From: Streptomyces sp. TLI_146
GTDB lineage: Bacteria; Actinomycetota; Actinomycetes; Streptomycetales; Streptomycetaceae
Direction: 5' to 3'
DNA length: 64,000 nt
Assembly: GCF_002846415.1 (NCBI RefSeq)
Contig: NZ_PJMX01000001.1
Span: forward strand, 6,696,001-6,760,000
Shown here: piece after piece, positions 1,427 to 64,000 of the stretch
How the letters are laid out: every line of letters begins with the position of its first letter
Numbering within the stretch: position 1 is the stretch's first letter
The notes under the pieces: generated by a model
Told to the model about the DNA's origin: nothing
Database searches by the model: none
The model's input: the letters and a program-made list of their open reading frames with translations, nothing else
Made by a program: the position numbers and the translations under genes

Positions 1427-1430
1427 CCGC

Positions 1431-1462
1431 GGCGGGTCCGGCCGGGATGACCGGGCCCGCCC
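1431..1462 (+). terminator. Hairpin just after parE
   Basis: GGCGGGTCCGG pairs with CCGGGCCCGCC (11 bp with one G-U pair) across a 10-nt loop, five bases after the parE stop. It has no U-tract, as is usual in Streptomyces. Confidence 0.5.
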
Positions 1463-1497
1463 GGGCGTTCCGGGGCACCGGGGTGGCGCGTCCACCC

Positions 1498-1524
1498 GTG
1501 GGTGGAGCCGAGAGCTCCACCCAC
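1498..1524 (+). terminator. Second hairpin after parE
   Basis: GTGGGTGGAGC and GCTCCACCCAC form a perfect 11-bp stem with a 5-nt loop. Together with the hairpin at 1431-1462 it makes a tandem terminator before the next gene. Confidence 0.55.
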
Positions 1525-1615
1525 GATCAACCCCTGCTCCGATGTGTCTGACCAGCCCGTTTCCGTAACTTCGATGGCGTAGGGAAGTCCTGCCGTCGTA
1601 GTTCCGGAGGCCCAG

Positions 1616-7270: not shown

Positions 7271-8988
7271 CGCGCCTCCCCAGGCAGTACGGTGCCGTGC
7301 GGATGCGCAGACGGCGCGGTCCCGTTCGGATCGTCACGCGGTACGGCCCCGTTCGCATCCCCGTCCAGCGCCTCGCTCAGCGCCTCCGGCAGGACCACGG
7401 TGAACTCGGCGCCGCCGTCCGGACCCGTCGCCACGCGCGCGTGGCCGCCCTGCCGCTCGGCGAACCGCCGGACCAGGGCGAGCCCCAGGCCCCGCTTGCC
7501 GTGGGCGGGCAGGGCCTTGGTGGACCAGCCCTCGGTGAAGATCAGTTCGCGCTGGTCGTCGGGGACGCCGGGGCCGCTGTCGACGACCCGCAGTACGGCC
7601 GTACGCCCCTCGGCGCGCAGGGTCACCCCGACCGAGGCGTCCGAAGTGCCGGCGGCCGCGTCCAGCGCGTTGTCCACGAGGTTCCCGACGACGGTGACGA
7701 GCCCGTGCGGGTCGACCAGCCGGTCGGGGAGCAGGCTGTCCGGGGTGATGCGCAGGGCGACCGCGCGCTCGGCCGCCACGGTGGCCTTGCCGACCAGCAT
7801 CGCCGCGAGCAGCGGGTCGCGGACCTTCTCGGTGACCTGCTCGGCGGTCGTCCGGTGCACCCCGACGACCTCGGTGATGAACTCGACCGCCTCCTCGTGC
7901 ATCCCCAGCTCCAGCAGGCCGAGCAGGGTGTGCAGCCGGTTGGCGTGCTCGTGGTCCTGGGCGCGCAGGGCGTCGATGAGGCCGTGGGTGGAGTCCAGCT
8001 CGCGGCCCAGGCGCTCCAGCTCGGTGCGGTCCCGCAGGGTGGCGACGGCGCCGCCGTCGTCGGTCGGCATGCGGTTGGCGACCAGGACGCGGTGGCCGCG
8101 TACGGTCAGCAGGTCGGTGCCCGTGACGCGGCCCGCGAGCACATCGGTCGTCCGGCCGGTGCCGAGCACCTCGTCCAGCGGGCGGCCCGCGGCCTCGGGG
8201 CCGACGCCGAGCAACCGCTGGGCCTCGTCGTTGAGCAGCCGGATCCGGCCGGTCCGGTCGAGCGCCACCACGCCCTCGCGGATCGAGTGGAGCATCGCCT
8301 CGCGCTCCGCGAGCAGCGCCGAGATATCGGAGAAGGCCAGGTCACGGGTCTGCTTCTGGATCCGGCGGGAGATCAGATACGCGGCGAGCGCCCCCGCCGC
8401 GAGGGCGCCGCCCGCGTAGGCGAGCAGCCCGGGGATGGCGGCGAGCAGTCTGGCGCGCACGCTGTCGTACTCGATCCCGACCGAGACCGCCCCCACGATC
8501 GCGCCGTCGGAGTCCCGCAGCGGCACCTTGCCGCGCGCCGAGCGGCCCAGGGTGCCGCTGTCGATCTCCATGACCTCCTCGCCCGCCAGCGCCTCGCTGG
8601 GGTCGGTGGAGACGACCTTGCCGATCTGCCGGCCGTCGGTGTGCGACCAGCGCACCCCGTGCCGGTCCATGACCACCACGTACTCGGCGCCGGTGGCCCG
8701 GCGGATCCGCTCGGCCTCGCGCTGGACGGGGCCGTCGGCGGCGGGCGGGGACGCGACCAGGTCCGCCGCGACCTGCGGCTGGGCGGCCGTCGACTGGGCG
8801 ATGGCGAGGGCCCGGCGCATCGCCTGGTCGTCGAGCTGGTGGCTGAGCGGGGCGAGGAACAGGCCGGTCGCGAGCACGGTGACACCGGCGGCGATCGCCA
8901 GCTGCATCAGCAGCACCTGGGAGAAGACGCGCTGCGGCCAGCCGAACCGCCGCCGTCCGGGTGGGGGCGTGCTGGGGACGGCACTCAT
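7267..8988 (-). CDS. CitA/DcuS-type sensor histidine kinase
   Basis: The 573-residue kinase has a membrane helix at about 26-46, an extracytoplasmic PAS-like (PASc) domain to about residue 180 and a second helix at about 185-207. A cytoplasmic PAS domain around 225-330 and a SpoB-type dimerisation helix with DHEHANRLHTLLGL follow, the form used by the CitA/DcuS family instead of a standard HisKA. The ATPase domain carries NLVDNALDAA and the G-box GKRGLGLALVRR. In the family the PASc domain binds carboxylates. It is cotranscribed with the response regulator. Confidence 0.87.
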   Translation of the reverse strand: MSAVPSTPPPGRRRFGWPQRVFSQVLLMQLAIAAGVTVLATGLFLAPLSHQLDDQAMRRALAIAQSTAAQPQVAADLVASPPAADGPVQREAERIRRATGAEYVVVMDRHGVRWSHTDGRQIGKVVSTDPSEALAGEEVMEIDSGTLGRSARGKVPLRDSDGAIVGAVSVGIEYDSVRARLLAAIPGLLAYAGGALAAGALAAYLISRRIQKQTRDLAFSDISALLAEREAMLHSIREGVVALDRTGRIRLLNDEAQRLLGVGPEAAGRPLDEVLGTGRTTDVLAGRVTGTDLLTVRGHRVLVANRMPTDDGGAVATLRDRTELERLGRELDSTHGLIDALRAQDHEHANRLHTLLGLLELGMHEEAVEFITEVVGVHRTTAEQVTEKVRDPLLAAMLVGKATVAAERAVALRITPDSLLPDRLVDPHGLVTVVGNLVDNALDAAAGTSDASVGVTLRAEGRTAVLRVVDSGPGVPDDQRELIFTEGWSTKALPAHGKRGLGLALVRRFAERQGGHARVATGPDGGAEFTVVLPEALSEALDGDANGAVPRDDPNGTAPSAHPHGTVLPGEAR

Positions 8989-9121
8989 GCGTATGCACGG
9001 TAGACGGCTCCGCGACGCATTCCGAATCTGTTCGCAAATCTGTTCGCATCGTGGGCGCCGCCGACCGTCTGGCTGCGGGCGTGGATTCTTTATCCGGCCC
9101 TTATCTCTATCTATCGGTGCC

Positions 9122-9361
9122 TTATACCTCCGGGATGTCCGCCTTGGCGCGCACCAGCGTTTCGCGGGAGATCGCGACGATCCGCTCGTATTCGGCCCGG
9201 GCGGCGTCGCTCGGCAGCTTGCCGTCCAAGTACTCGGTCATGTCCGTACCGATGACCGCGAACCTGCCGTCGCTCAACTCGAAGATGTCCGGGCATGTCT
9301 GCCCCGACAGGCTGCCGCGTTCCCGTGGGGAGGCACCGACCCTGCGCACGATTGTCACCAA
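9122..9361 (-). CDS. Small conserved Streptomyces protein of unknown function
   Basis: The 79-residue soluble protein is rich in charged residues and contains CPDIFELSDGRFAVIGTD and ADIPEV at the end. Similar short proteins are common in Streptomyces beside small regulatory genes (from memory), but no function is known to me. The start is TTG at 9361 or the GTG one codon later; neither has a strong RBS. It lies about 90 bp downstream of the next gene on the same strand and could share its transcript. Confidence 0.6.
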   Translation of the reverse strand: MVTIVRRVGASPRERGSLSGQTCPDIFELSDGRFAVIGTDMTEYLDGKLPSDAARAEYERIVAISRETLVRAKADIPEV

Positions 9362-9454
9362 GGGACCGTTCCAATGGCTCGGAGGAGTCTAGGACTTAGG
9401 ACAGACAACCAGACTCGCGGCTGTGGCGGTGTGCGCATACGGAATTGGTGACAA

Positions 9455-10036
9455 TTACCTCAACTTGCTGATGTTTCGCACGATCTCGTCCACGCGGCGG
9501 CCGAGGCGTGCCTCCTGGGAGTCCTCCTGGAGCGCGTTCCGGTGCTGCCGGGTGGACTCCCAGTATTCGCGGAAAATAGGACTGCGGCAGATGACCCGCA
9601 GATGTCCGCCGATCTCGCTCTCACTCGTCGAACCGGTCCGGTACGCGTGCAGCACATTGCTGTAGAGGGCGTTCGCGTAGAGGAACTGCCGCTGTTTGAC
9701 CGGCGGTACGTCCCCTTCGAACGTGTCCAGGACCGCTGCCAGTTCGGGGTCGTCCATGGCCTTGCTGAGCAGGTCGAAGTGGAGCCGGTGCTGGTGGGTG
9801 AGGGTGATCCGGCGGGCCAGCAGCCGGTGCTGGAGGGCGAGTCCGGCCGCCCCCGCGGCGACCGCGAGCCCGGCGAAGACGCCGCCGGCGGAGGCCCCGG
9901 CGGCCGCCGGGGCGATCGCGTGGAACCCGGCGCCGAGCGCCAGGCTGAGGACGGCGGCCAGCGCCACGGCGCCCGCCGCGAGCGCCGCCGTCGCCGCCGT
10001 ACCGTCGTGCTGTCCGGTTCTGTGCAGGCTGGTCAT
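9455..10036 (-). CDS. DUF6082-like membrane-anchored protein (copy 2)
   Basis: The 193-residue protein has two hydrophobic helices near the N-terminus (about 15-33 and 38-66), then a soluble helical domain with DDPELAAVLDTFEG, KQRQFLYANALYSNVLHAYRTG and SPIFREYWESTRQHR. The same landmarks occur in the upstream neighbour (MEDPSLAAVWNGFPG, RQYLFANLTFGHLL, SEPYRRYWALSRDAK), so the two are diverged paralogues. Family resemblance is to DUF6082, known mainly from Streptomyces; the role is unknown. GGGAGAAGAG precedes the ATG, 24 bp after the neighbour's stop. Confidence 0.65.
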   Translation of the reverse strand: MTSLHRTGQHDGTAATAALAAGAVALAAVLSLALGAGFHAIAPAAAGASAGGVFAGLAVAAGAAGLALQHRLLARRITLTHQHRLHFDLLSKAMDDPELAAVLDTFEGDVPPVKQRQFLYANALYSNVLHAYRTGSTSESEIGGHLRVICRSPIFREYWESTRQHRNALQEDSQEARLGRRVDEIVRNISKLR

Positions 10037-51254: not shown

Positions 51255-52625
51255 ATGCCCTCAACGCCCGCAATGCAGAACGAGCCCGCGTCCTCGTCCG
51301 AGGCTTCGTCCGCGCCCTCGCTGGTCGGGGAGGAGTACGAGGTCGAGGTCGGCCCCGTGGCGCACGGTGGCCACTGCATCGCCCGCACGGAGCAGGGCCG
51401 GGTTCTCTTCGTGCGGCACGCGCTGCCGGGCGAGCGGGTCGTGGCCCGGGTGACGGAGGGCGAGGAGGACTCCCGGTATCTGCGGGCCGACGCGGTCGAG
51501 ATCCTGTCCGCGTCCAAGGACCGGGTCGAGGCGCCGTGCGTGTTCGCGGGCCCGGGCAAGTGCGGCGGCTGCGACTGGCAGCACGCGAAGCCGGGCGCGC
51601 AGCGCCGCCTCAAGGGCGAGGTCATCGCCGAGCAGTTGCAGCGGCTCGCCGGGCTGACGCCCGAGGAGGCCGGCTGGGACGGCACGGTCATGCCCGCCGA
51701 GGGCGACAAGCTCCCCGCGGGCCAGGTCCCGCAGTGGCGCACCCGCGTCCAGTACGCCATCGACGAGGACGGCCGGGCCGGCCTGCGCAAGCACCGCTCG
51801 CACGACGTCCAGGTGATCGACCACTGCATGATCGCGGCGCCCGGCGTCAGCGAGCTGGGCATCGAGAAGCGCGAGTGGCCGCAGATGGAGTCGGTCGAGG
51901 CGATCGCCGCGACGGGCTCGCACGACCGCCAGGTGGTCCTGACCCCGCGCGCGGGCGGCCGCCTCCCGCTGGTGGAGCTCGACAAGCCGGTGTCGGTGCT
52001 GCGGGTCGAGGAGAAGGACGGCGGAGTCCACCGCGTCCACGGCCGCGCGTTCGTCCGCGAGCGCGCTGACGAGCGTACGTACCGCGTCGGCATGGGCGGC
52101 TTCTGGCAGGTCCACCCGCAGGCCGCGGACACCCTGGTCAAGGCCGTGATGCAGGGCCTGATGCCGCGCAAGGGCGAGATGGCGCTCGACCTGTACTGCG
52201 GCGTGGGCATCTTCGCGGGCGCCCTCGCCGAGCGCCTCGGCGAGACCGGCGCGGTCCTGGGCATCGAGTCGGGCAAGCGCGCGGTGGAGGACGCCCGCCA
52301 CAACCTGGCCGACTTCCCCCGCGTACGCATCGAACAGGGCAAGGTCGAGCAGGTCCTGCCCCGCACGAAGATCACCGAGGCCGACCTGATCGTCCTGGAC
52401 CCGCCCCGAGCGGGCGCGGGCAAGCAGACGGTCAAGTACCTCGCGGGCCTGGGCGCCCGCCGCATCGCCTACGTCGCCTGCGACCCGGCGGCGCTGGCGC
52501 GGGATCTGGCGTACTTCGCGACGGGCGGCTACAAGGTGCGGACGCTGCGGGCGTTCGATCTTTTTCCGATGACTCATCATGTGGAGTGTGTGGCGATTCT
52601 TGAGCCTGCGGAAAAGGGCGCCTGA
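51255..52625 (+). CDS. TrmA/RlmD-type RNA 5-methyluridine methyltransferase
   Basis: The 456-residue enzyme has a TRAM domain (about 20-80), a Fe-S cysteine set (CVFAGPGKCGGCDWQH, plus an upstream or downstream Cys), the SAM motif LDLYCGVGIFAG, DPPRAGAGK and the catalytic Cys445 in HHVECVAILEP. Its target (tRNA or 23S rRNA uridine) is not determined. The last 20 codons switch to A+T-ending codons (ATT, CTT, CCT, TGT) rare in the rest of the gene, where the sequence duplicated at 57269 begins. ATG 51255 or the in-frame ATG 51273 may be the start. Confidence 0.85.
   Translation: MPSTPAMQNEPASSSEASSAPSLVGEEYEVEVGPVAHGGHCIARTEQGRVLFVRHALPGERVVARVTEGEEDSRYLRADAVEILSASKDRVEAPCVFAGPGKCGGCDWQHAKPGAQRRLKGEVIAEQLQRLAGLTPEEAGWDGTVMPAEGDKLPAGQVPQWRTRVQYAIDEDGRAGLRKHRSHDVQVIDHCMIAAPGVSELGIEKREWPQMESVEAIAATGSHDRQVVLTPRAGGRLPLVELDKPVSVLRVEEKDGGVHRVHGRAFVRERADERTYRVGMGGFWQVHPQAADTLVKAVMQGLMPRKGEMALDLYCGVGIFAGALAERLGETGAVLGIESGKRAVEDARHNLADFPRVRIEQGKVEQVLPRTKITEADLIVLDPPRAGAGKQTVKYLAGLGARRIAYVACDPAALARDLAYFATGGYKVRTLRAFDLFPMTHHVECVAILEPAEKGA
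52563..52610 (+). other. Putative left attachment site in the 3' end of the trmA-like gene
   Basis: TTTCCGATGaCTCA and GTGGAGTGTGTGGCGATTCT and GAGCCTG recur with few differences at 57269-57313. The exact 20-nt core and its position at the very end of a gene are typical of a site-specific integration site whose element restores the reading frame. Confidence 0.6.
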
Positions 52626-53115
52626 CCTGGCGTTTTGCGTGTTATGTGCCGTGTCGGCGCTACGGGCGATATCTTGACGCTGAAATGGCGTTCGTGATGC
52701 TCATTTGAGGCTCGTTCTGATGGGACGTCAGGCATTTCGTTTCGCTGGTCAGGCGGCCTGCTGGCCTGAGTGCGGCAGGGCCTTGAGGGTCTCGTGACGG
52801 TTAGCGGTGTGTTTGTCCCTGCGTGCGCAACGTCCTGCAGGGTTCTCGGTTCTTGCGGCAGACACCCTGACGTCTAGCAGCGGCTGTATCGCGGTTGTCA
52901 GCTGTATTGGTCCGCACTCGGTCCGGATCTCGCTCCGGGGACCCCGGAGCGAGAAGGCTTCTCTCCTGGCACCACAGGACGTAGGTAATTGAAAGCGCCC
53001 TGAGGCGGCCAGGCGTTCTAGCCGGAGGCGCAAGCGCAGGTCATCTTGTGCTTCGAGGGCGTCAACGGGCAGCGGGCGCCGTCGCTTGTTCCTGTAGCGG
53101 TGGTTCAAGGCACTG
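52626..53115. other. Gene-poor, lower-GC junction sequence of the island
   Basis: In the 490 bp between the trmA-like stop and the STAND gene stop no gene is convincing. A 119-codon minus-strand frame (52749-53108) has a basic start and no recognisable domain. The base composition is visibly less G+C-rich than the core. A perfect 13-1-13 inverted repeat lies at 52928-52954. Confidence 0.5.
52928..52954. terminator. Perfect 13-bp inverted repeat, probable bidirectional terminator
   Basis: TCTCGCTCCGGGG and CCCCGGAGCGAGA flank a single A. It lies between the convergent trmA-like and STAND genes; a hairpin would open a few central pairs as the loop. Confidence 0.6.
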
Positions 53116-56100
53116 CTACCTTCGCGAACCGGTCTGGGTGCCCGCAGGGAGTCCGCTGTCGACGGACTCCTGCATCCTGGTCACGAGCGCAACCACCTGT
53201 TTGGTCAGCGCCTCGTCGTTGGTCTCGCCGAGTGCGGCGACCGCCGCTGTACCGAGCGCGATGGCCTCCACTGGGTCTGTCGCCCACAGAGCCGACGAAA
53301 GCAGGGAAAGTGCGTACCCCTCTCCATGGCGGTCCCGTGCCGTTCGGAAGAGCGTGATCGCCTCACGGACTGCTTCCGTGGCCCGGTCCGGGAGCTCTAG
53401 TTTCGCCCACACTTCGCTCAGGTTCATCAGCGCCTTGGCTTGCGCGTGAGCGTTGCCGGCCTCCTTGAGCAGCTCGCTCGCCCTCGTTAGCATCTGAGCG
53501 GCCTCGGCCGATGCGCCTGCCTGGTTCCGACTGGCCCCGAGGTTCGTCAGCGCAATGCCTTCCCCGAGCTTGTCCCCGATGTCGCGACATATGGCGACGG
53601 CCTCCTCAAGAACTTCCGAATCGCCACCGAATCCGCCTTGTCGCAGAGCCGTGCCCAGATTGGCGAGGGCCATAGCGACACCGTGGCGATCGTCGGCCTT
53701 GCGGAAGGAGTCCCGTGAGGCCGCGTGCGCAGCCGCAGCTTCACCGGCCTGCCCTAGCTCCCTTAGAGCCAGGCCCAGATTGTTCTGGGCGATCGCCTCA
53801 AGGTGCCAGTCCCCGAGGAGGCGGCAGATCTCGATACCCCGGTGGTATACGCCCACCGCCTCCTCGTAGCAGCGCGACTCTTCCAAAGAGCGTCCGAGAT
53901 TGTTGAGCGCGGCGGCTTCGCCACGGCGATTTCCCGTCTTGGCCTGGAGGACCACGGCCTTTCGCAGCACGAGTACAGCCCGCTCGATGTCACGCATCTC
54001 TTGGAGGGTGTAACCGAGGTTGGTCAGCACCTCCGCTTCGCCCAGAAGGAAGCCCTCCGCCCTGTGGGCGCTGAGGGCTTGCTCGTGTGCGGCAACTGCT
54101 TCGGAGAACCGGGTCAGTCCTCTGAGAGCGCATGCACGTGCGTCGATGAGCGCGGCGCGGACGCGGGTATGGGCGCTTCCGAGGCAGAGCTCCAGCGCGC
54201 TGTCGTATACGGCCGTCAATTCGGCGAAGCCTCGCCGCAGTTTGAGGTAGTCGCCGATACGTATCGCCATCTGCAGGATGGCGTAGGAGTTAGGTGCGCG
54301 GGGTGTTGCGGTGATGGCCGCGACGAGGTTCGCCCGTTCTTCATCCAGCCAGGAGAGCGCGGCGCTCCGGTCGGCGAACCGGGGCGCCGGAGACTGACCC
54401 GGGACGAGATGGCCGTGCGCCTCGGCCAGGCGGCCCGCGTAGTGGCGGAGCAGCCGAGCCGAGGCGGCGGAGCGATCGTCGTCGGACTGCTCCGCCCGCC
54501 CGGTCTCGTCCGCGTAGAGCCTGATCAGGTCGTGCATGCGCCACCGGCCGTATGTGGCCGCGCTCTGCACCAGATGGCCGCGCCCCAGGGCTTCCAGGAG
54601 TTCCTCGGCTGTGTCCGGGTCGACATCGCATAGCTGGGCCGCGGACTCGGTCGAGACGTCGGGGCCGGGGTTGAGCGCGAAGAGCCGGAAGAGCCGTGCC
54701 TGGTCCGGCGGCAGGTGCTGGTAGGACAGTTCGAAAGCGGCTCGTACCGCGAGGTTCCCCCGGCTCAACCGACGCAGGCGACGATGCTCGTCGTCCAGAG
54801 CCCGGGCCATCGAGGACAGCGGCCTGGCAGGCTGGTCCGCGAGGAGAGCGGCGACAATCCGCAGCGCCAGCGGCAGGTACCCGCACTGCCGGGCGATGGC
54901 CTCTGCCGCGTCTGGGGCGTCGTCGACCCGCGTGTCCCCCTCGCCCCGGCTCGCCCGCAGGACAAGGCGGAGCAGATCTAGGGAGTCCACGGGATTGAGG
55001 ATGGTCAGGTCGTGCAGGCGAGCATCGAGGTCGGACAGCGTGTGTCGGGAGGTGATCAGTACGGGGGTGCGTGCGTCACCTGGGAGGAGGGGCCGGACCT
55101 GCTCGCCGTCCATGGCGTCGTCGAGGACGATCAGAGTGCGCTGGCCCCCGTCGGCTCGGTTGCGCAGCGTCGATCGGTACAGCCGCGCGCGGTCCTCGAG
55201 CCCCACGGGGATGTGCTCGTGGTCGATGCCCAACCCCCGGAGCATGAAGGCGAGTGCCTCGTCGGGGCCCTGACGGCGGGCAGGGTCGTATCCGTAGAGC
55301 TCGGCGACAAGGACACCGGCGAACCACCCGTCCCGCCCATGGGCGCGATGGGCAACCTGCCGCACCAACTCGGTCTTTCCGACGCCGGGCAACCCAGCTA
55401 CGACGTGGACCGCCGACCCTTCGCCGATGGCACCCGGGTCCAGCACCGCGAGCAGCTCGGCCATAGCGGCTTCCCTACCGGTGAATGTGCCGGACAGGGT
55501 AGGCAGCCCCGAAAGGGCGGGGGTGGTCCGACGGGCAACGCGGAGGCGGGTGGCCCCACCCGCCGACGGTGCCACAGCGTCTCCCTCTTGTGGGATCGCG
55601 TACTGCAGCCCGTACTGCGGGAGTTGGGCCGCCAAGGCCGCCGCGTCGAGGCGCGTGCCCAGGGAGTTCAGGAGGAGGTCGCCCAAGGCGAGGGCCGCCA
55701 GGCGGCCGGGAGCCCCGGCCAGCGCCCTTTCGGCGAGGGCTGCATTGACGGCGACCACGTCGCGCTCATCGGGCCACTCCACCCACAGGGAACGGAGCAT
55801 GCGCCATGCTGCTTCCGGTGCGCCATAGATCCGGGGGGCCGCAAGTTCGTCGAAGGGAGCACGGAGTTCGTCCGTCAGCCAGTCACGGACGAAGGAGGGG
55901 AAGTCGTCGGAGCGACGGGCGCGGTCGCCGAGTTCCTGGAGCGGCCGGGCCGGCACCATGGAGACGAAGTGGAACTCGTGGCCCGCCTCGGCGTGGGTGC
56001 GCAGATGCCGCCAAATCCCCTTTGCCTCCAGGGACGCGACGTTCCAGCCGTTGGCATTACGGTTCTGTCGTTTGACTTGGTGCACCTCGGTGCGGCCGCC

Positions 56101-56262
56101 GTGGCGGTAGACGAACTCGGTTCCCTCGCCCAGGATTCCGTTCGGTTCGAGGGTGAGTGAATCGCCGTGCCCGAGCAGGATGTACAAGGCGTGCCTGATC
56201 GTCCAGGCCCCCTCGTAGCGGTTGCCGAACTTGTCCGTCTCACCACCCGGCCTCGGCGCCAC
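53116..56262 (-). CDS. STAND (NLR-like) protein: PD-(D/E)xK nuclease - NB-ARC - TPR
   Basis: The 1048-residue protein starts at a GTG with AAGGGGGAG 4 bp upstream. Residues about 1-200 form a Cap4/Mrr-like effector domain: RYEGAWT (Glu17), EF (Glu49-Phe50) and EVHQVKRQ (Glu59 to Lys64), the catalytic pattern of PD-(D/E)xK nucleases, followed by FHFVSM. An NB-ARC ATPase follows with Walker A GLPGVGKTE (290-298), Walker B LIVLDDA (377-383), VLITSR and an MHD-like MHDLIRLYA. From about residue 680 there are at least eight TPRs (LNNLGRSLEE, NNLGLALREL, ANLGTALRQ, TNLGASRNQ). This is the architecture of antiphage NLR-like proteins, in which ligand binding to the repeats triggers oligomerisation and DNA cleavage. 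Confidence 0.82.
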   Translation of the reverse strand: MAPRPGGETDKFGNRYEGAWTIRHALYILLGHGDSLTLEPNGILGEGTEFVYRHGGRTEVHQVKRQNRNANGWNVASLEAKGIWRHLRTHAEAGHEFHFVSMVPARPLQELGDRARRSDDFPSFVRDWLTDELRAPFDELAAPRIYGAPEAAWRMLRSLWVEWPDERDVVAVNAALAERALAGAPGRLAALALGDLLLNSLGTRLDAAALAAQLPQYGLQYAIPQEGDAVAPSAGGATRLRVARRTTPALSGLPTLSGTFTGREAAMAELLAVLDPGAIGEGSAVHVVAGLPGVGKTELVRQVAHRAHGRDGWFAGVLVAELYGYDPARRQGPDEALAFMLRGLGIDHEHIPVGLEDRARLYRSTLRNRADGGQRTLIVLDDAMDGEQVRPLLPGDARTPVLITSRHTLSDLDARLHDLTILNPVDSLDLLRLVLRASRGEGDTRVDDAPDAAEAIARQCGYLPLALRIVAALLADQPARPLSSMARALDDEHRRLRRLSRGNLAVRAAFELSYQHLPPDQARLFRLFALNPGPDVSTESAAQLCDVDPDTAEELLEALGRGHLVQSAATYGRWRMHDLIRLYADETGRAEQSDDDRSAASARLLRHYAGRLAEAHGHLVPGQSPAPRFADRSAALSWLDEERANLVAAITATPRAPNSYAILQMAIRIGDYLKLRRGFAELTAVYDSALELCLGSAHTRVRAALIDARACALRGLTRFSEAVAAHEQALSAHRAEGFLLGEAEVLTNLGYTLQEMRDIERAVLVLRKAVVLQAKTGNRRGEAAALNNLGRSLEESRCYEEAVGVYHRGIEICRLLGDWHLEAIAQNNLGLALRELGQAGEAAAAHAASRDSFRKADDRHGVAMALANLGTALRQGGFGGDSEVLEEAVAICRDIGDKLGEGIALTNLGASRNQAGASAEAAQMLTRASELLKEAGNAHAQAKALMNLSEVWAKLELPDRATEAVREAITLFRTARDRHGEGYALSLLSSALWATDPVEAIALGTAAVAALGETNDEALTKQVVALVTRMQESVDSGLPAGTQTGSRR

Positions 56263-56689
56263 CAGCTCCCCCTTGCCCGCCCAACGGACGACTCCGCGAC
56301 CCCGCCCCGTGCACGGTCGCGCGCAGGGCCACCGTACCCGGCGGCGCTGACAGCGGTGTTCCGCCGGCAGCATGGCTGGGGGAAGGCCACTGAGCTGGGC
56401 TCAGTGCGCTCGCCGTCGGCTGCCGCTGGGATTCCGGTGGAGTGGCAGATTCACAAAGGCGACGTGTGGCCGCCTGCCGAGGAGTGCTCCCCGCGGGCGG
56501 CCACAACAGGCATGGGGGAACTACTGCTCGTCGAGCACCCCGGCCCCGGCACCGCCCCAGCGCCGCAGCGTCTCTGGAACGGTGACCGTGCCGTCGGGGT
56601 CGCTGGTGCTTTTCGAGGATCGCGGGCAGCGGACGGCCGGTGGCGAGGGCCTAGGCGTTGAGGGTGTGGGCGTGTACGCCGCCTTGTCA

Positions 56690-56929
56690 CTACCGGCCGG
56701 GCGGTAGCGGATGTTGCCGCGCCGGGCTTGGTGGCCGCGGGCGTTCGAGACCGAGCTGACCTCGACGTAGGTGTTGCTGCCGAACAGACGCTGCACCGGA
56801 TCCCGACCATGCTGCGCCTGTATGCGCAGTGCGCGAGCATCGCAGCGGCAGTTCGACGAGTCCTTGGGCGGAGGCGTGCAGGTCGTCCAGTGACTCCGGC
56901 AGACGCGGCCGGAATTCCTCCCGGTACAA
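56690..56929 (-). pseudogene. Relic of a small Streptomyces regulatory-cluster protein
   Basis: The frame opens with MYREEFRPRLPESLDDLHASAQGLVELPLR-like sequence, which resembles the middle of a common Streptomyces protein of unknown function (from memory), then loses similarity after about 32 codons, as expected for a frameshifted remnant. No RBS precedes it. Confidence 0.35.
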
Positions 56930-57268
56930 CGCGAGGTCCTCGGCGACCGGGCCCGGGACGTCGCCGGACTCGGGGGCGGCCTGCTGCGGGCTGGAGGCAT
57001 GCCTCCATTACGTCGCCGGGGAAGCGGCGCGGGGGACGACGGGCGAGCCGTGACGCAGGTGTGGCACTTGGGTTGCCATCGAGGCTTCCTACGCGGGTGG
57101 CCACCGAGAGGCGCGGCATCAGCGAGGCGGAGATCATTCGCCAGAGCATCCACCTTGTCGGCACGGCCAACCGCGTCTGGCCCGGGCCTCTCCCGTACGT
57201 ACGAGAGGGTTGTCCGCACTACCACAAAGCGAGAGGTGCGCGGCGCCGTCGCCGACGACCTGCCCTGC

Positions 57269-57313
57269 TTTCCGATGGCTCACGTGGAGTGTGTGGCGAT
57301 TCTGGAGCCTGTG
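57269..57313 (+). other. Putative second attachment site / displaced trmA 3' end
   Basis: This is a near-copy of 52563-52610, encoding FPMAHVECVAILEP in place of FPMTHHVECVAILEP, with a 20-nt identical core and one 3-nt deletion. Upstream sequence shows no further similarity to the trmA-like gene, so it is a short boundary repeat and not a second gene copy. Confidence 0.6.
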
Positions 57314-57537: not shown

Positions 57538-59859
57538 ATGGGTGGGGACCCGTATCTATCAGCAACGGTTGACGAACATGGGGGGTCGCAGGCGTCGTTG
57601 ACGCCCGACGACAGGGCGCAGGTGCCTGATCCGTACGGGGAACGGGCCCTGCTGACCGCTGCCATGACGAAGGGCTACGGCGCCGTACCCGACGAAGAGC
57701 GTGGCCGGTTGCGGCACTATCTCGAAGCAGTCGTCTCGGTTCGTCCGGCGCCCGTCCACACCGCCGTCGCCTTCAACGCCGTGTACTTCGGGTACGACCT
57801 CGGTGGCGACGGCTACGGCGGCAGCCCACTCCGCCTCGACGACTTCCCTGTGATCACCTTCGGTGAGTGTGCCCCCGTGCTCCCGGTCGGTGCGATGGTG
57901 CGCGTCACCACCGGGTCGGACCCGGTTTACGCCGAGATCGTCTATCGGGAAGGCGCCCACCCTGAGGTCGGTGCCCTCGGTGACGTGCCGGCCTGGGTTT
58001 CGGGGGCGCCTGCGGGCGCCGAGGGCCCGGGCAGGCCGGGAGAAGATGTCGGGCTACGGCGCAGGGAGCTCCTGGTCCCGGACCTCGATGCCTTCGGGCC
58101 GGCTCTGAGCCTGTCGTCGGCCCAGCTCCACCGCTTACGCACGCGTCGGCGCTGGATGAACGAGGACGGGCATGTCGTGGTCGACGTGTGCTATCCGTCC
58201 CCGGAGGCGGCCCGGCGCGACGACCTGACGGCTTATGCGGAGCATCTGCTGACGACGGCGCGGGAACAACTGCTCAGCCCCTTCGTTCCCGTTTCCCTGG
58301 CTGCGCTGGTGGGTGGCACACAGGACGACGACCTGAGGGCGGGCCTGCTCGGTCTCCTCGACACGGTGAAGGGTGTACTCGACTCCAGCGCCGCCTTGCG
58401 CACGTGGCGGGACTACGCCATGAGCCGGACCTCCCTCGCGGAATGCTGGCGGGACCCCGGGCCGCTGGGAGGGGATGACCTCAGGTCGCTCGCCGCGGAG
58501 GTCGAGCGCGCGGCCACTCCGGAGCGGCGGCGCTACGGTCTCACCACGCCGGTCACCGTGTATACAGCCGTCGGGCCGAGGATCCGTGGATTCCCGGGAG
58601 CGACGGAGTTACTCAGGGGAGTGGGGTACGCCGCAGCGGTGTGCCGGGCGAACGTGGCGCTCACCGACGTCGTCCAAGGGAACAGCGAGCACGGGCTGTT
58701 CGAGACGGGCTCCCGGATCACGCTCGATGATGCCTTCGAAAGCGGAGGCGTGTGGCGGTCCCATTATCCCGGTGGCGCGGAAGCGGCGGGAGACACCTTC
58801 GCTCCGGCCGGGCGGGGGTGGACGTCCACGTTACCCCCGCCCTTGGAGCCGGAACCGACAACAGAGTTGGAGCCCGAGGATCTGTGCCTGGCCGACGACG
58901 CCGCTCTGAGTATCGGCGAACTCTTGCGGAGTGATGCACAGGAAATCGTCTGGCGGGTGCCCCTGCGACTGTCCCAGTTCATCGACGGGTGGTTCCCCTT
59001 GCCTCTGTGCGTCGTGGAAGAACTTCGCGGTTCTGCCGGTGCGTGCCGCCAGATTCGCCTTGAACTCCACCATGAGGGTGAGGTGTTGGGCCCGGAAGAG
59101 GCGGTGCAGGATGTCATCGCCGAACTCGGTGACGAGTCGGGCCGGTTGGCCGGGATTGTCTGGCCGCGCGACTTCTTCCCGGGCCTGATGCTGGAGCTGC
59201 GCTGTCTCCGCGGTAGCTCGTTGATCCGGCTGGCCACGACGCGGCTTGCGGAACGAGTGCAGGTCGGTGACCGTGTCACCGGCCATTGCTATGAGCCCCG
59301 TGTGCTCACGAGGGAGGACGTCCCGGGAAGCGACCGCTACGGTGACAGCGCGGTCGGGCTCGGCCCCCGGCAACTGGTCATGCGCACCGTGCGCCGTTGC
59401 GGCCTGCTCACCCTGGATGGCCATGCTCTCCTGGACCGTTCGGTGCTGCCGAGCGCGGCCTACGGGCGTTGGCCGGCTCGATCGCAGGCCGCCGCGCTGG
59501 AATCGGCTGTGGTGGAACTCCTCGCGGAAAGGCTTCTGGAACCGGCCCTCGGTAGCCGGGACTCCTGGGGGCAGCCGCATTTCCCGCCGCGCGACGGGCA
59601 GCGAACCATCCCCCTCATCGCCTACCGCCCCGCTGCCACGCGCGTAATACGTCCCTGGGGCGGCACCGGATTGGGAGGCGAGGAGATGCGAGGCGTTCAG
59701 TTCGTCCCCGGCCATCTGCGCCGCCTGCGACCGGGATGTTCGCCCAGTGAAGTGCAGCGTGTCGCCTTTCGGGAGCACTGCCGCAGGCTCGGCAAGGCGG
59801 ACGGCTGGGAACTTCCCTACGGATACACGTTCGTAACCGAACATATGCGCGGTCACTGA
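57538..59859 (+). CDS. Large protein of unknown family, partner of the downstream giant gene
   Basis: The 773-residue soluble protein has no membrane segment and no recognised enzyme motif. Landmarks are an N-terminal alpha/beta region (VHTAVAFNAVYFGYDLGGDGYGG, LRLDDFPVITFGECAPVL), a middle region LSIGELLRSDAQEIVWRVPLRLSQFIDGWFPLP near 465-490, and a C-terminal block VPGHLRRL...LPYGYTFVTEHMRGH. GGAGG lies 6 bp before the ATG. The next gene starts 82 bp downstream on the same strand, so the pair is probably one transcript. I have not identified its family. Confidence 0.72.
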   Translation: MGGDPYLSATVDEHGGSQASLTPDDRAQVPDPYGERALLTAAMTKGYGAVPDEERGRLRHYLEAVVSVRPAPVHTAVAFNAVYFGYDLGGDGYGGSPLRLDDFPVITFGECAPVLPVGAMVRVTTGSDPVYAEIVYREGAHPEVGALGDVPAWVSGAPAGAEGPGRPGEDVGLRRRELLVPDLDAFGPALSLSSAQLHRLRTRRRWMNEDGHVVVDVCYPSPEAARRDDLTAYAEHLLTTAREQLLSPFVPVSLAALVGGTQDDDLRAGLLGLLDTVKGVLDSSAALRTWRDYAMSRTSLAECWRDPGPLGGDDLRSLAAEVERAATPERRRYGLTTPVTVYTAVGPRIRGFPGATELLRGVGYAAAVCRANVALTDVVQGNSEHGLFETGSRITLDDAFESGGVWRSHYPGGAEAAGDTFAPAGRGWTSTLPPPLEPEPTTELEPEDLCLADDAALSIGELLRSDAQEIVWRVPLRLSQFIDGWFPLPLCVVEELRGSAGACRQIRLELHHEGEVLGPEEAVQDVIAELGDESGRLAGIVWPRDFFPGLMLELRCLRGSSLIRLATTRLAERVQVGDRVTGHCYEPRVLTREDVPGSDRYGDSAVGLGPRQLVMRTVRRCGLLTLDGHALLDRSVLPSAAYGRWPARSQAAALESAVVELLAERLLEPALGSRDSWGQPHFPPRDGQRTIPLIAYRPAATRVIRPWGGTGLGGEEMRGVQFVPGHLRRLRPGCSPSEVQRVAFREHCRRLGKADGWELPYGYTFVTEHMRGH

Positions 59860-59940
59860 TCCGTCACCTCTTCGCGTGTCCACGGGTCCGGACGGCTCCC
59901 CTCTTTCGTCCCTGTGTCCACAGAAACGGAGTACGCGTAC

Positions 59941-62900
59941 ATGCAAGACCGCTACCGCGTCGTCACGGGGCCGCCGTGGTCCCCGGTGAGCGTCCCGGCG
60001 CAAGACCTCGAAGGCCTGGCTGTCGCGCTCAACGCCTTGGAGCCGCCGACGATCGCCGCCCTGAACGACCTCACGGTCGACATGGTGGAACTGGCCTTCA
60101 ACTCCCTGCGGCCAAAGGACCGGCAGCAGTTGCTCGGCAGTCTGGGGATCCGCATGGCGGCCCCCCGTCGGGTGAGCGGTGCCCTGTGCCGGGACGTGCT
60201 CGCCAGGTTGCGGCGTGAGTCCCGGCAGCAGACCGCCACGCACGGGATCAGAGCACTCACGGTCACCGTGATGAATCAGGTGAGTGACTTCGTCTTCGCA
60301 CCGCGGGGTGAGACCGTTCCCGACCCCGTTGCCCGGTGGGGCACGACGCTCGTCCGGGCCACTGTGTTCGCGTGGTGCCATGCCTCCGTTGCCAGCGCCC
60401 ACATCCTTGCCTGGGCGGCGGACCAGGACTGGTTCGCGGTGATGGCCGACGGGAAGGAGACTGCTCAGCTCGTAGCTGTTGCTGCGGCGGCACGGTCCCT
60501 CGTCGAGGCGCACCCTGGCTTCGTCCCCGGAGCAGCGGAAGCCGACGACTCGCTGCTCCCGGGCGAGGGAAAGACCGTACGCCCAGCCGTCACTGAGCGG
60601 GCGGGCGGGGATCCCCCCTCCTACCAGACCGGGGTACTCGATCTCGGCACTCCTCACGAGATGACCGCTGCGGCGTCCGACGACATCGGTACCGACGAGG
60701 GGACGGATCCGGAGTCGGCATGCAGGCAACTGGAGTCAGCTCTCGCGCGTGCCCGGCAAGCTGCCGAGAACGTGATCGGCTCGATCATGGACGGTTGCCC
60801 TCCGCGGAGCGAGGACCTGGCTCCACTGGTCGCGCTGGGAGCTGCCTTCGACAGCGTCGACGCGGTGCTCCGCGCGGTGGGGATCGTGGAAGTGCCGCGC
60901 CGTCTGGAGGAGTTGACTCGTGCCGCACGTGCTTACGGGGCGGTGCGCGAGCATGACCTCCGGGCACGGGAGTTGCTGCGCGAACTGCTGAATGTCACCG
61001 CCCGGCCGGACAGCTCCGCCGCGGCTGCCGCTGCCGCTGACGCCGTGCGCAGCGCGGCCCGTTGCTTGCTGGACACTGCGCTGTGGGAGGACCGGCAATG
61101 GGATGAAAGCGCCGCGTTGGCCGCCTTGGCCCGGATCATCGGGCTCGGGCGGCAGGCGGATGCCGCGGCGGAGATCCTGGCCCTGCAGGAGCAGGTCGTG
61201 CAGACGTTGCCCACCTGCGCCATAGCGGTGGTCATCGCAGCTGAACTCACGTTGGCCCAGCCGGAGGACGCCGGTGGTGAACCCGATGAGGCCGAGGCGA
61301 GACGCGCCGCCGAGCACGCCGGCGGCGAAACGACTGTGAAGTACGCCGACCTGCCACCGTCCGGAGAGCCGGAGGAGACTGCCCGCCGCCCCGTTGAGGA
61401 GCCCGCGCCCCGGCACATCTCCGAACCGGAAGCCGTGACGGCCTACGAGCCCACGTCTGCCCTCGATGGGCAGGGCGCGCCAGCTGCAGAGAAGGACCCG
61501 ACACCTCCCACCGGCCAGGACACGCCTGTCGCGACAGCGGTCTCCGAGCCGGTCCACGTTACCGAAGCGCATGCCATGCCCTCCGTGGACAGAGACCCGG
61601 ACTCGTTGACGGAGCCGGAGGCGATTGTCTCGGATTCCGCGGCGCCACCTATCCGTCCCGCCGAGGACACGCTCGTCCGCGAGGCGGCTCCGGCCGTGGG
61701 TGATGCCTTTGATGAGGCCGCGGCCGAGCAGGCCTTGGCGCATCTGGTCGTGAAGCGGCGCTTCGGACTGGCCCAACATCTGGCGAGGGCCGCCGGCTAC
61801 CCCGAGCCTCAGGTGGTGGCACTCCGCTTGGCCGGTGCCGCCGCGCTGCTCACCTCCGGTGACAGTAGGGCTGCCCGCCTGACGGCAGACCTGCTCCAGC
61901 AGTACGGCGGATACGCGGGCCCGGACACCGAGGGCAGTGAACTCCTCCTGCTGCCCGCACTGCTGCGAACCGCCCTGATCACTGGTGACCACTCGGCAGG
62001 GGCCCAGCTCAAGGCGCTGGTGCCCCGGCTCCCTGAGGGGCTCGCGGAGGCGGGAACCGCCGTCGCCGACCGGGCCCTCAGCGGTGCCCTGATGATCGCC
62101 TCTCCGCTGGTTGCCGGTGCCTCCGAAAGCGAGGTTCGGGTGCGGGAGCTGCGCGAGCAGAGCCGTGCCCTTCTCGCGCCGCAGAGGCTGCGGTTCGCGC
62201 GGGCGACGGAGATCGCCAAGTGCTGGCTCGCTCCGGAGGACGGGATGCTGGGATCTTTGCTCACGACCGTCGCCGGCGACAGTCGCGAAGCGATGCAGCA
62301 GGTGCGGGAACAGGCCGAGCGGCTGGGCAGGCTGGCCGAGATCAACAGCGAGATCGACCGCATGGACCGCAAGCACCGCTCGTCCAGTGGCAAGCCGCTC
62401 CAAGGCTCCGGGCGCCAGGATCTGGTCCACTTGGTGGAGCGAGCCGTCAGTCTGGTCAAGGAGTGGTGCCTGGCGGTCGAAGGTACCCGGCGCAGTGACC
62501 GTTCCGATGGGAACCGGGCGGCCAAGGAGATCGCCTCTTTGCGTCGGTCCCTGCTGGACGGCCAAGAGGCGGCGCTGATGGAGCTGGAGCAGATGGCGCG
62601 GCGTTCGGATGCCCTCGCCGCCGCGACGGCCTGGGCCGCACGCGCGTCGATGGAGGAGCTGTTCGCCATGCTCGCCGGTGACGCCATGGCCAGGCGCTCG
62701 GGTGTTTCGGTCCGCCCGGAGCTCGTGCTGGACGCCGAATTGCTGAAGGTGTGTGACACCTGTGACGAGCGGCCCTCGCTCGAGGCACTGCTGAACGCGG
62801 TCGACCGGAGCTGGCGGGACGCCCTCGACGAGCGACTCTCCCGAGACGCCTTCGCCGCGGCCCGTAGCATCGTCGAACTGGCCGAACTAGGCCTGCTGCC

Positions 62901-64000
62901 CGGGTCTCGGGCCGATGAGTTCGTCCCGTTCGACGATGCTGAGATCGACAGACGGGAATCCGCCCGGCGCACGAAACTGCGCAAGGCGCACGGCGAACTC
63001 GTCGCCGAGCTGCACCGTGCCCAGGCTGACGGAGCCGTGACCGAGGACCAGGACCTGGGCCTTCAGGAACTGCTGGCCGACGCTCATGACCGCCTGGAGG
63101 ACGCCGACCGGCATGACCTGCTGGACGTGCGGCGGGCGTTGGACACGGTTCGGAGCGACCTGCCCGCCTTCCGCCGACAGGCGTCCGATCGGATCCGCGC
63201 CCGGCTCGACGCCCTGGAGCCCACCGCGGAGGAGCGTGCCCAGGTGCTGCGACGCCTGGAGACGAACGACCTGGCCACCGCCGCCGACCTCGTCTACTTC
63301 CTGGAAATCGGCGAACCGGTCCCGGAGATCGAGGGAGGCGAGTCGCACCTACCCGACTTCTTCCCGGCTGTGCCCGACGGTCTGCCGGGAGGCATCGACC
63401 GCAACCTCGTCGATCTGGTCCGATCGGGTGGCAAGCATCCCTCGCTTCCCATCCTGGACTATGGCGGCCTTTCCACGGACGAGGCGGCACTCGCGGCCGA
63501 CGCCCTCGACGAGTGGCACGCGATGGCCTCCACGGAGCGGAATGACCGGATCCAAGTGGCTCCGACGAGGCAGGTACCGCCGCTGCTCAAGCTCCTCGGC
63601 TATGACGCCAAGAGTGCCAGAGCGCTCGACGACAGGTCCCAGCACCGGCGGGAATATCGTCTCTTCGAAGCGACTGGGGTGGAGATCAACGGCAGGGCGA
63701 AGGCGCCCGCGTTCGGCTCTCAGATCAGGGAACAGGGTGGCAACCTTCGGGTGATGGTGGTCTGGGGCAGACCGCCCGCGAAGGTCGTCATGAGCTGGGC
63801 AGAGCGTGACACCAGCGATGCGAGCCTCCTCGTCGTCTACTTCGGCACGCTGAGCCGCGAGGCTCGCGTCGAACTCGCCGTCGGTTCCAGTCGGTTGCAG
63901 CCGCTGATGGTGGTGGACGACGCGGCCCTTGCCTATCTCGCCGCCCGTGGCAATCGCCAGGTCAGTACAGCGACACAGACCATGCTGCCCTTCTCCGGTG
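59941..64000 (+). CDS. Giant helical/coiled-coil protein, 3' end outside window; probable ATPase C-terminus beyond
   Basis: The frame is open from ATG 59941 to the window end, at least 1353 residues. Visible parts are an N-terminal helical domain (about 1-210), an alanine-rich helical region (about 255-440) and an acidic Pro/Glu-rich linker (about 440-590). A helical-repeat-like region follows (about 590-720, starting ALAHLVVKRRFGLAQHLARA), then coiled coils (about 780-1130) and an alpha/beta segment ending LLVVYFGTLSREARVELA...MVVDDAALAYLAA...TMLPFSG. In proteins I recall with that last block, a GGRQLGK-type P-loop ATPase follows, so one is predicted just beyond the window. CGGAG lies 12 bp before the ATG. 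Confidence 0.7.
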   Translation, partial: MQDRYRVVTGPPWSPVSVPAQDLEGLAVALNALEPPTIAALNDLTVDMVELAFNSLRPKDRQQLLGSLGIRMAAPRRVSGALCRDVLARLRRESRQQTATHGIRALTVTVMNQVSDFVFAPRGETVPDPVARWGTTLVRATVFAWCHASVASAHILAWAADQDWFAVMADGKETAQLVAVAAAARSLVEAHPGFVPGAAEADDSLLPGEGKTVRPAVTERAGGDPPSYQTGVLDLGTPHEMTAAASDDIGTDEGTDPESACRQLESALARARQAAENVIGSIMDGCPPRSEDLAPLVALGAAFDSVDAVLRAVGIVEVPRRLEELTRAARAYGAVREHDLRARELLRELLNVTARPDSSAAAAAAADAVRSAARCLLDTALWEDRQWDESAALAALARIIGLGRQADAAAEILALQEQVVQTLPTCAIAVVIAAELTLAQPEDAGGEPDEAEARRAAEHAGGETTVKYADLPPSGEPEETARRPVEEPAPRHISEPEAVTAYEPTSALDGQGAPAAEKDPTPPTGQDTPVATAVSEPVHVTEAHAMPSVDRDPDSLTEPEAIVSDSAAPPIRPAEDTLVREAAPAVGDAFDEAAAEQALAHLVVKRRFGLAQHLARAAGYPEPQVVALRLAGAAALLTSGDSRAARLTADLLQQYGGYAGPDTEGSELLLLPALLRTALITGDHSAGAQLKALVPRLPEGLAEAGTAVADRALSGALMIASPLVAGASESEVRVRELREQSRALLAPQRLRFARATEIAKCWLAPEDGMLGSLLTTVAGDSREAMQQVREQAERLGRLAEINSEIDRMDRKHRSSSGKPLQGSGRQDLVHLVERAVSLVKEWCLAVEGTRRSDRSDGNRAAKEIASLRRSLLDGQEAALMELEQMARRSDALAAATAWAARASMEELFAMLAGDAMARRSGVSVRPELVLDAELLKVCDTCDERPSLEALLNAVDRSWRDALDERLSRDAFAAARSIVELAELGLLPGSRADEFVPFDDAEIDRRESARRTKLRKAHGELVAELHRAQADGAVTEDQDLGLQELLADAHDRLEDADRHDLLDVRRALDTVRSDLPAFRRQASDRIRARLDALEPTAEERAQVLRRLETNDLATAADLVYFLEIGEPVPEIEGGESHLPDFFPAVPDGLPGGIDRNLVDLVRSGGKHPSLPILDYGGLSTDEAALAADALDEWHAMASTERNDRIQVAPTRQVPPLLKLLGYDAKSARALDDRSQHRREYRLFEATGVEINGRAKAPAFGSQIREQGGNLRVMVVWGRPPAKVVMSWAERDTSDASLLVVYFGTLSREARVELAVGSSRLQPLMVVDDAALAYLAARGNRQVSTATQTMLPFSG

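What the first reader, a model, noticed from the sequence alone, without database searches (positions are those of the whole stretch)
57538..64000. Two-gene operon of a 773-aa unknown protein and a giant partner: possible undescribed conflict system
The two adjacent co-directional genes have no recognisable enzyme domain in the visible part. The giant protein combines disordered, helical-repeat and coiled-coil regions and ends in a block that I associate with a following P-loop ATPase. Large multi-domain ATPases paired with an unknown protein next to an NLR nuclease in an island are typical of NTP-dependent conflict systems. Whether the STAND gene is part of the same system is open.
Basis: partly seen in the sequence, partly recalled or inferred. 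Interest (0 to 1): 0.72.

Follow-up and report, generated by a model that had tools for sequence, protein, structure and literature searches.

The report
Mobile ATPase plus DNA-binding pair
Two neighbouring genes in a Streptomyces genome, a large ATP-powered switch protein and a predicted DNA-binding partner, travel together between bacteria and are linked to an Argonaute-like defence system, so they probably form an undescribed defence against foreign DNA.

Summary
The 773-aa gene (P2, 57538-59859 +) is followed by a giant gene that runs past the window to 66123 (2069 aa from GTG; more likely 2060 aa from ATG 59941). The giant carries a P-loop ATPase of STAND/ORC-Cdc6 fold, starting at the window's end. 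P2 has no Pfam, NCBIfam or PADLOC match; its model holds a probable B3-like DNA-binding barrel and winged helices. The pair is a real unit: 18 of 18 sampled same-genus genomes with near-full-length P2 have the giant directly downstream, as do 74 of 79 actinobacterial loci (4 of the other 5 stop at contig ends). Flanks vary; third-position GC and att-like repeats indicate an island. Elsewhere the pair is the tail of a larger operon: 35 of 79 loci have a DinG/RecQ-type helicase directly upstream, apparently lost twice. Five also have a pPIWI-RE gene adjoining, and in Bradyrhizobium and Microvirga pPIWI-RE is fused to the giant, inside a REase/DinG/pPIWI-RE operon. The window's STAND gene is not part of it (0 of 79). 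Best reading: reduced form of a mobile, NTP-dependent, DNA-targeting conflict system. Activity is untested, and no effector nuclease was identified in the two-gene form.

The parts
57538..59859 (+). P2, 773-aa partner protein, first gene of the pair; predicted multi-domain DNA-binding protein
   Evidence: ORF; no Pfam/PADLOC/NCBIfam match; AF2 model mean pLDDT 86; 18 of 18 same-genus genomes with near-full-length P2 have the giant downstream
58927..59301 (+). B3-like pseudobarrel of P2 (residues about 464-588), probable DNA-reading domain
   Evidence: VIA-align: VRN1 Z 6.8 (93 aligned, 2.9 A), EcoRII N-domain Z 6.6 (109, 3.8 A), VAL1 5.8, LlaJI.R1 N-domain 5.7; 12 of the first 14 rows are B3-type proteins (the B3 label of some is recalled); Foldseek prob 0.96 but E only 0.06 for LlaJI.R1
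59914..64000 (+). Giant gene, part inside the window; likely start ATG 59941; continues to 66123. First 1100 residues not modelled
63595..64000 (+). Conserved alpha/beta domain just before the ATPase (giant residues about 1228-1362), shared with the pPIWI-RE-fused relatives; the ATPase (residues about 1362-1758) begins at the window's end
   Evidence: AF2 model of the L060 relative, pLDDT 85; cross-phylum alignment A4; ATPase fold Z 18.7 to 2qen
52581..52608 (+). Attachment-like sequence: 28-bp core inside the 3' end of an RlmD/TrmA-type rRNA methyltransferase gene (name recalled)
   Evidence: 27 of 28 bases recur at 57284; 100 shuffled cores reach at most 20 of 28
57284..57311 (+). Second copy of that core, between the STAND gene and P2: probable left edge of the segment that holds the pair
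   Evidence: the same gene 3' end precedes the pair in 10 of 79 related loci, with further repeat copies in several

Best explanation
The pair is the reduced, two-gene form of a mobile, NTP-dependent conflict system that acts on foreign DNA. P2 reads DNA through a B3-like barrel and several winged helices. The giant protein is a STAND/ORC-Cdc6-type ATPase that couples recognition to a conformational switch or to assembly on DNA. In the fuller operon the switch would pass the target to a large DinG/RecQ-type helicase with a possible exonuclease domain (HEL), encoded directly upstream, and in some genomes to the pPIWI-RE restriction triad. In the window's clade HEL was lost, so the pair must act by blocking DNA directly, by recruiting host helicases and nucleases, or through an effector still hidden in P2 or in the giant's N-terminal half. 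Shown: gene linkage, mobility signs, ATPase fold (by model), absence of HEL in two clades, and the fusion and operon links with pPIWI-RE. Predicted from structure: DNA binding by P2. Inferred: target, switch, effector step and the defence role.
For: Linkage: 18/18 genomes and 74/79 loci. No gene other than P2 and the giant is shared by more than 10 of 40 two-gene loci. HEL directly upstream in 35/79 loci (37 counting fragments in L111 and L130); in 32 of the 35 P2 has an in-frame start at a 4-base overlap with HEL's stop. HEL domains in L048: DEAD 9e-29, Helicase_C_2 1e-21, PADLOC type IV DinG 5e-63 and DpdF 3e-61. HEL also follows a giant without P2 (L189). HEL presence needs two changes on the P2 tree. 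pPIWI-RE adjoins in 5/79 loci, in 3 directly upstream on the same strand; the full REase-DinG-pPIWI-RE triad lies beside the operon in S. mashuensis. pPIWI-RE is fused to the giant's module, with REase and Z/DinG-type genes upstream, in Bradyrhizobium (Pfam) and Microvirga (annotation and similarity; upstream genes by Pfam). Mobility: third-position GC 0.79-0.83 against 0.94-0.97 for three resident genes, repeats, plasmid copies. ATPase fold. B3 fold.
Against: No phage or plasmid assay exists. No nuclease domain was identified in the two-gene form. The B3 match is below the level that the aligner's note calls safe (Z under 8). pPIWI-RE adjoins in only 5 of 79 loci and is common in the genus (58 of 199 genomes); defence genes cluster anyway, so part of the adjacency may be island clustering. 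No copy was found in phage records, and a viral-contig scan with the giant's core confirmed none of 25 candidate stretches.
Confidence: 0.6

Rival explanations
1. A maintenance or regulatory module of an integrative element: P2 binds the element's own sites and the giant ATPase acts like an ORC/MuB/TnsC-type loader in replication, partition or integration, not in defence.
For: The ATPase fold is also close to Orc/Cdc6, TnsC and MuB; the pair sits in a repeat-bounded island and on plasmids; P2 looks like a DNA binder.
Against: Flanks vary and no third gene is conserved beside the two-gene form; the partners elsewhere (DinG/RecQ-type helicase; pPIWI-RE fusion and triad) are those of restriction-like systems.
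Confidence: 0.2
2. Self-sacrifice (abortive infection) switch: the giant is an NLR-like sensor that senses invaders through P2 and kills or arrests the cell.
For: STAND/NLR fold of the ATPase (CED-4 Z 15.8, plant resistosomes about 16); very large N-terminal region; the two-gene form has no identified nuclease.
Against: The ATPase lies in the C-terminal part with about 1360 residues before it and no recognised effector or repeat sensor domain; the helicase and pPIWI-RE partners point to direct action on DNA.
Confidence: 0.15
3. Genetic debris: a pair that hitch-hikes on islands with no present function.
For: Broken copies exist: a remnant in L054, eight ORFs in place of two in the plasmid of Streptomyces sp. 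AD2-2, fragments in S. philanthi (L106).
Against: Of 53 intact giants that I picked, 27 come from two-gene loci, and one search shows further intact ones in two-gene loci that I did not pick; constraint at codon positions 1 and 2; P-loop and Walker B residues kept in at least 53 of 54 aligned giants.
Confidence: 0.05

Closest known systems
pPIWI-RE three-gene systems (REase, DinG-type helicase, pPIWI-RE; Burroughs et al. 2013, PMC3702460, abstract and passages read)
   Same: The giant's ATPase module is fused to pPIWI-RE inside this operon type in Bradyrhizobium and Microvirga, and the pair's operon lies next to a pPIWI-RE gene in five actinobacterial loci; DinG-type helicase partner
   Different: The window has P2 instead, and no pPIWI-RE in its genome by PF13032. 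The main text of that paper holds 'ATPase', 'AAA' and 'STAND' 0 times, so it does not describe such an ATPase there
BREX and BREX-related systems (BrxC/PglY ORC-Cdc6 ATPases with winged helices; PMC12839542, passages read)
   Same: Large ORC/Cdc6-type ATPase with winged helix, multi-winged-helix DNA-binding partners and helicases
   Different: No PADLOC BREX model matches P2, the giant or the STAND gene; other neighbours were not scanned with PADLOC
CglI/NgoAVII restriction systems (abstract and outline read, PMC4267653)
   Same: Two-protein logic: an endonuclease protein plus a separate ATPase whose dsDNA-dependent ATP hydrolysis is needed for cleavage. That the endonuclease carries a B3 domain is recalled; the term was only counted in a search listing
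   Different: P2 has no recognised nuclease domain; the giant is a STAND/ORC ATPase, not a DEAD-family one
Avs and other STAND/NLR defence proteins (recalled)
   Same: STAND-type ATPase core in a large protein (Avs3 is among the Foldseek rows, E 3e-5)
   Different: ATPase near the C-terminus, no recognised N-terminal effector or C-terminal repeat sensor, near-obligate DNA-binding partner gene in this clade

Membership tests
pPIWI-RE system | pPIWI-RE protein (MID plus RNaseH domain) | tested here: not met
   No PF13032 match in the window's genome. The 14 named control genomes also gave none, but the same search rang in 58 of 199 genomes of the genus, so it can detect the family
pPIWI-RE system | DinG-type helicase in the operon | tested here: not met
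   No large helicase ORF beside the pair; a HEL search of the own genome gives two partial matches, both to the RecQ-like part only. HEL is present in 35 of 79 relatives
pPIWI-RE system | Y/Zn/REase protein | not tested
   REase families were found beside some relatives but not searched in the window's genome
BREX | BrxC/PglY ATPase | tested here: not met
   PADLOC scan of P0001, P0002 and P0003 gives no BREX model
BREX | PglZ gene in the locus | not tested
   Other genes of the window were not scanned with PADLOC
STAND/ORC-Cdc6 AAA+ ATPase (superfamily of the giant) | P-loop, Walker B, AAA+ core with winged helix | tested here: met
   Motif residues kept in at least 53 of 54 aligned giants; 2qen Z 18.7, rmsd 5.1, 323 aligned; ORC2 17.7; CED-4 15.8
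B3/EcoRII-N-like DNA-binding domain (in P2) | B3-type pseudobarrel | tested here: inconclusive
   Consistent top rows but Z 5 to 7, Foldseek E 0.06; no B3 family among Pfam matches of 63 members
CglI/NgoAVII type | PLD nuclease and B3 in one protein (recalled), DEAD-family ATPase partner | tested here: not met
   No PLD family among Pfam matches of P2 and 62 relatives; the ATPase is STAND/ORC type
Defence system in general | Protects against phage or plasmid | not testable with these tools
   Needs an experiment

The most novel reading that the evidence does not exclude
The giant ATPase is an undescribed NTP-driven chassis that serves both guide-directed and protein-directed DNA targeting. In alphaproteobacteria the Argonaute-like pPIWI-RE is fused to it; in actinobacteria a B3/winged-helix reader (P2) takes that slot, with or without a helicase. 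Some pPIWI-RE systems would then have an unrecognised fourth core activity, and the window's pair would be a guide-free descendant.
Probability: 0.35. Interest if true: 0.8.

Novelty: new variant of a known kind. Interest (0 to 1): 0.6.

Why it matters
pPIWI-RE proteins are little-studied Argonaute relatives. A recurrent ATPase that is fused to them, shares operons with them and also works with a different DNA-reading partner gives a concrete handle: it predicts an NTP-dependent step in these systems and offers a two-gene set small enough to test in a laboratory Streptomyces strain. It also adds two protein families without annotation (P2 and the giant) to the known stock of mobile conflict genes.

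Tried and rejected
P2 as a divergent pPIWI-RE or Argonaute: no PIWI or RNaseH family among the Pfam matches of 63 members and none among the listed rows of the fold searches (an unlisted fold is not excluded). Both proteins also coexist in one gene string in L102, L117 and L127, so P2 is not simply the PIWI gene.

STAND gene as third component: no P0003 match in 79 loci with flanks of up to 10 kb. Rejected.

A conserved extra gene replacing HEL in the two-gene clades: none found. Small ORFs upstream recur in 5 or 6 of 40 loci, close relatives only.

Viral carriage: tblastn of both proteins against phage records, no match; viral contigs, 25 pattern stretches, none confirmed (giant core only).

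Empty insertion site: the 1.5-kb flanks held for 24 same-genus relatives did not contain the gene that follows the pair in the window, so no clean empty site was shown and the right edge in the window stays undefined. Integrases were not searched for by family.

Fold of P2's N-terminal 450 residues and of the giant's first 1100 residues: no confident match, or not modelled; the two structure jobs went to P2 and the ATPase end.

Rows left out: the P2 scan kept the best 80 of 86 confirmed stretches. For the P2 structure alignment I used 62 of 75 near-complete loci plus the window; for the tree 56 loci plus the window; for the giants 53 picked loci, of which 49 went into the structure alignment. 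Near-identical sequences were the ones mostly dropped.

Literature: 'pPIWI-RE' (1 paper), 'PIWI-RE' with Argonaute (145 papers, 25 listed, most by other word matches), with DinG (7 papers), with defence/helicase/ATPase (none), 'RNaseH_pPIWI_RE' (none), and wider defence terms. No listed title or abstract start describes the giant or P2. Passages of PMC10853773, PMC7159879 and PMC7641849 were read and gave nothing on it. The library holds open-licence papers only, so absence from print is not shown.
Full report
What is in the sequence. The 773-aa gene (P2) and the open frame after it are as described. Extended, the giant gene stops at window coordinate 66123 and encodes 2069 aa from the GTG at 59914. 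In many relatives the frame's first start codon matches residue 10, and the ATG at 59941 has GGAG upstream, so 2060 aa is likelier. The P-loop (GGRGLGKS, residues 1400-1407) lies about 110 bases past the window. The giant gets only weak AAA_16/ATPase_2/AAA_22 matches (best E 1.8e-5, under cut-off) and a PADLOC PDC-S01 match at E 0.05; P2 gets none in Pfam, PADLOC or NCBIfam. Scanned one by one, 63 P2 proteins share no Pfam family: the commonest match, in 7, is to a low-complexity model.

The pair is a unit. Of 199 genomes of the genus, 22 match P2. Eighteen hold near-full-length P2, and in all 18 a relative of the giant lies downstream: directly so in 17 loci (the giant in L051-L053 and L055 recognised at lower identity), and in G032 (P2 at 1297-3606 and the giant's core at 6966-9785 of the same contig and strand). 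The other four are a broken remnant (G192) and three genomes with only P2's C-terminal part. The giant's C-terminal core is in 31 of 199 genus genomes and in 7 of 396 genomes drawn across the phylum, so it is wider than P2. Some giants have another downstream partner of about 400-510 aa (L033, L185, L188, L190); in G433 the giant is followed by HEL, with no P2 match in the stretch. A scan of genome contigs with P2 kept the best 80 of 86 confirmed stretches, 79 loci, in Streptomyces, Kitasatospora, Nonomuraea, Amycolatopsis, Pseudonocardia, Catenulispora, Geodermatophilaceae and others. The giant is present in 74 of 79; L091, L105, L130 and L133 end at contig ends, and L111 lacks it.

A third gene. 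In 35 of 79 loci (37 with the fragments in L111 and L130) a gene of mostly about 2000 aa, HEL, directly precedes P2; in 32 of the 35 P2 has an in-frame start that overlaps HEL's stop by 4 bases. In L048 it matches DEAD (9e-29) and Helicase_C_2 (1e-21); PADLOC gives type IV DinG (5e-63, residues 377-1093) and DpdF (3e-61, 1199-1558). The RecQ label rests on these, on RecQ_Zn_bind at E 0.04 and on recall. A DEDD-type exonuclease at the N-terminus is suggested only weakly (RNase_H_2 E 0.015 in L048, RNase_T E 0.03 in L189). On a FastTree tree of 57 P2 proteins HEL presence needs two changes, both forced by well supported branches, against 18.6 in shuffles. HEL occurs on both sides of the midpoint root, so two losses is the simplest reading; the window belongs to the larger HEL-less clade. 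The program warned of long branches meeting, so deep forks are uncertain.

Link to pPIWI-RE. A pPIWI-RE gene adjoins the operon in 5 of 79 loci: directly upstream of HEL on the same strand in L117 and L127 (12 bases apart) and L102 (70 bases), convergent downstream in L093 and L103. There it is part of a full triad (L247): Y/REase protein (PF18156 6e-55, PF18154 3e-39), Z protein (PF18155 4e-54; called DinG after Burroughs et al.) and pPIWI-RE. In a Bradyrhizobium elkanii plasmid one ORF of 3100 aa holds pPIWI-RE at the N-terminus (Pfam) and the giant's ATPase module at the C-terminus (2290-3056 against the window's giant 1265-2029, E 2.5e-45). In a Microvirga plasmid a 3394-aa ORF matches it over both parts (1-955 E 3e-105; 1865-3328 E 1e-161). 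Each follows a REase gene (PF18154) and a Z-type gene (PF18155; in Microvirga just under the cut-off). Azospirillum ramasamyi has the same operon, with pPIWI-RE split by a break inside the RNaseH domain. Among 25 plasmid records that match the Azospirillum module, 7 (four species) are annotated with the RNaseH domain. Other contexts are a sigma-70 fusion in Brasilonema next to a PLD/SNF2 helicase and a Methylocystis giant near a STY4851-type gene and a DEAD/DEAH helicase. Against over-reading: pPIWI-RE occurs in 58 of 199 genus genomes. By only two of the 31 genomes with the giant have it within 20 kb (G035 adjoining, G197 about 16 kb away). My own rough arithmetic gives about 0.05 by chance, but defence genes cluster. 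The fusion is the stronger evidence.

Structures. The P2 model (63 sequences, mean pLDDT 86, pTM 0.59) has no strong match (best Foldseek E 0.06). Residues 464-588 align with B3-type domains in 12 of the first 14 VIA rows (VRN1 Z 6.8, EcoRII-N 6.6, LlaJI.R1-N 5.7), and residues 51-302 and 606-700 with winged helices at Z about 3 to 5. These are suggestive, not proof. P2's C-terminal part also occurs without the rest, in two cases behind a Cys-containing stretch, which fits a modular DNA reader. The giant's end, modelled on the L060 relative (49 sequences, pLDDT 85), has a STAND/ORC-Cdc6 ATPase with winged helix at model residues 235-631 (2qen Z 18.7, ORC2 17.7, CED-4 15.8, resistosomes about 16). 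The preceding alpha/beta domain is conserved across phyla but unassigned.

Mobility. Third-position GC is 0.79 (P2) and 0.83 (giant) against 0.94-0.97 in three resident genes. A 28-base core of the 3' end of the upstream rRNA methyltransferase gene recurs at 57284 with 27 matches; 100 shuffles reach at most 20. The same gene end precedes the pair in 10 of 79 loci, with extra copies before P2 (L061, L062, L064, L071, L095) or after the giant (L061, L062, L063, L074). The name RlmD/TrmA-type is recalled. In the window the STAND gene lies in one repeat-bounded segment and the pair in the next.

How it likely works. P2 recognises DNA; the giant, an NTP switch of the ORC/STAND kind, responds and in the fuller operon engages HEL and, in some genomes, the pPIWI-RE triad. 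Similar logic is known: in CglI and NgoAVII cleavage by the endonuclease needs a separate ATPase (PMC4267653, abstract), and ORC/Cdc6 ATPases with fast-evolving winged-helix modules and nucleases recur, there together with HerA/FtsK, in invader-capture systems (PMC12839542, passages). [quoted passage not shown] In the two-gene form the effector is unknown. Codon-position constraint and at least 27 intact giants in two-gene loci say that form is functional.

Verdict. I rate it a new variant of a known kind: the NTP-dependent, DNA-targeting logic is known, while the protein families and the ATPase link to pPIWI-RE were not found described in the papers searched.

Noticed in passing
window 52563-57311: The 3' end of an RlmD/TrmA-type rRNA methyltransferase gene looks like an insertion hotspot: degenerate copies of its end separate cargo segments in tandem (STAND gene; P2-giant pair; in relatives a pair of small ORFs). 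Integrases were not searched for.
   Followed up: partly
window 53116-56373: STAND/NB-ARC protein with TPR repeats (1085 aa, minus strand); no relative of it lies beside the pair in 79 related loci.
   Followed up: partly
L036:5624-12493: In Brasilonema the giant ATPase is fused behind sigma-70 regions 1.2 to 4, next to a PLD/SNF2 helicase; a sigma factor on a conflict ATPase is odd.
   Followed up: no
L035, L038, L139 (downstream gene): The pPIWI-RE-giant operons of alphaproteobacteria end with a further P-loop protein (AAA_33 in the two scanned, about 550 aa); a WYL-domain regulator lies just upstream, divergent from the operon.
   Followed up: partly
L033, L185, L188, L190: A second actinobacterial form: giant ATPase followed directly by an unannotated protein of about 400-510 aa in place of P2.
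   Followed up: no
L056:9008-10858, L057:9713-11024: P2's C-terminal DNA-reading half occurs without its N-terminal half, behind a Cys-containing stretch.
   Followed up: partly
L054 and L031: Decayed copies: a remnant in which P2 runs into the giant's last part, and a plasmid copy in Streptomyces sp. AD2-2 annotated as eight separate ORFs.
   Followed up: no
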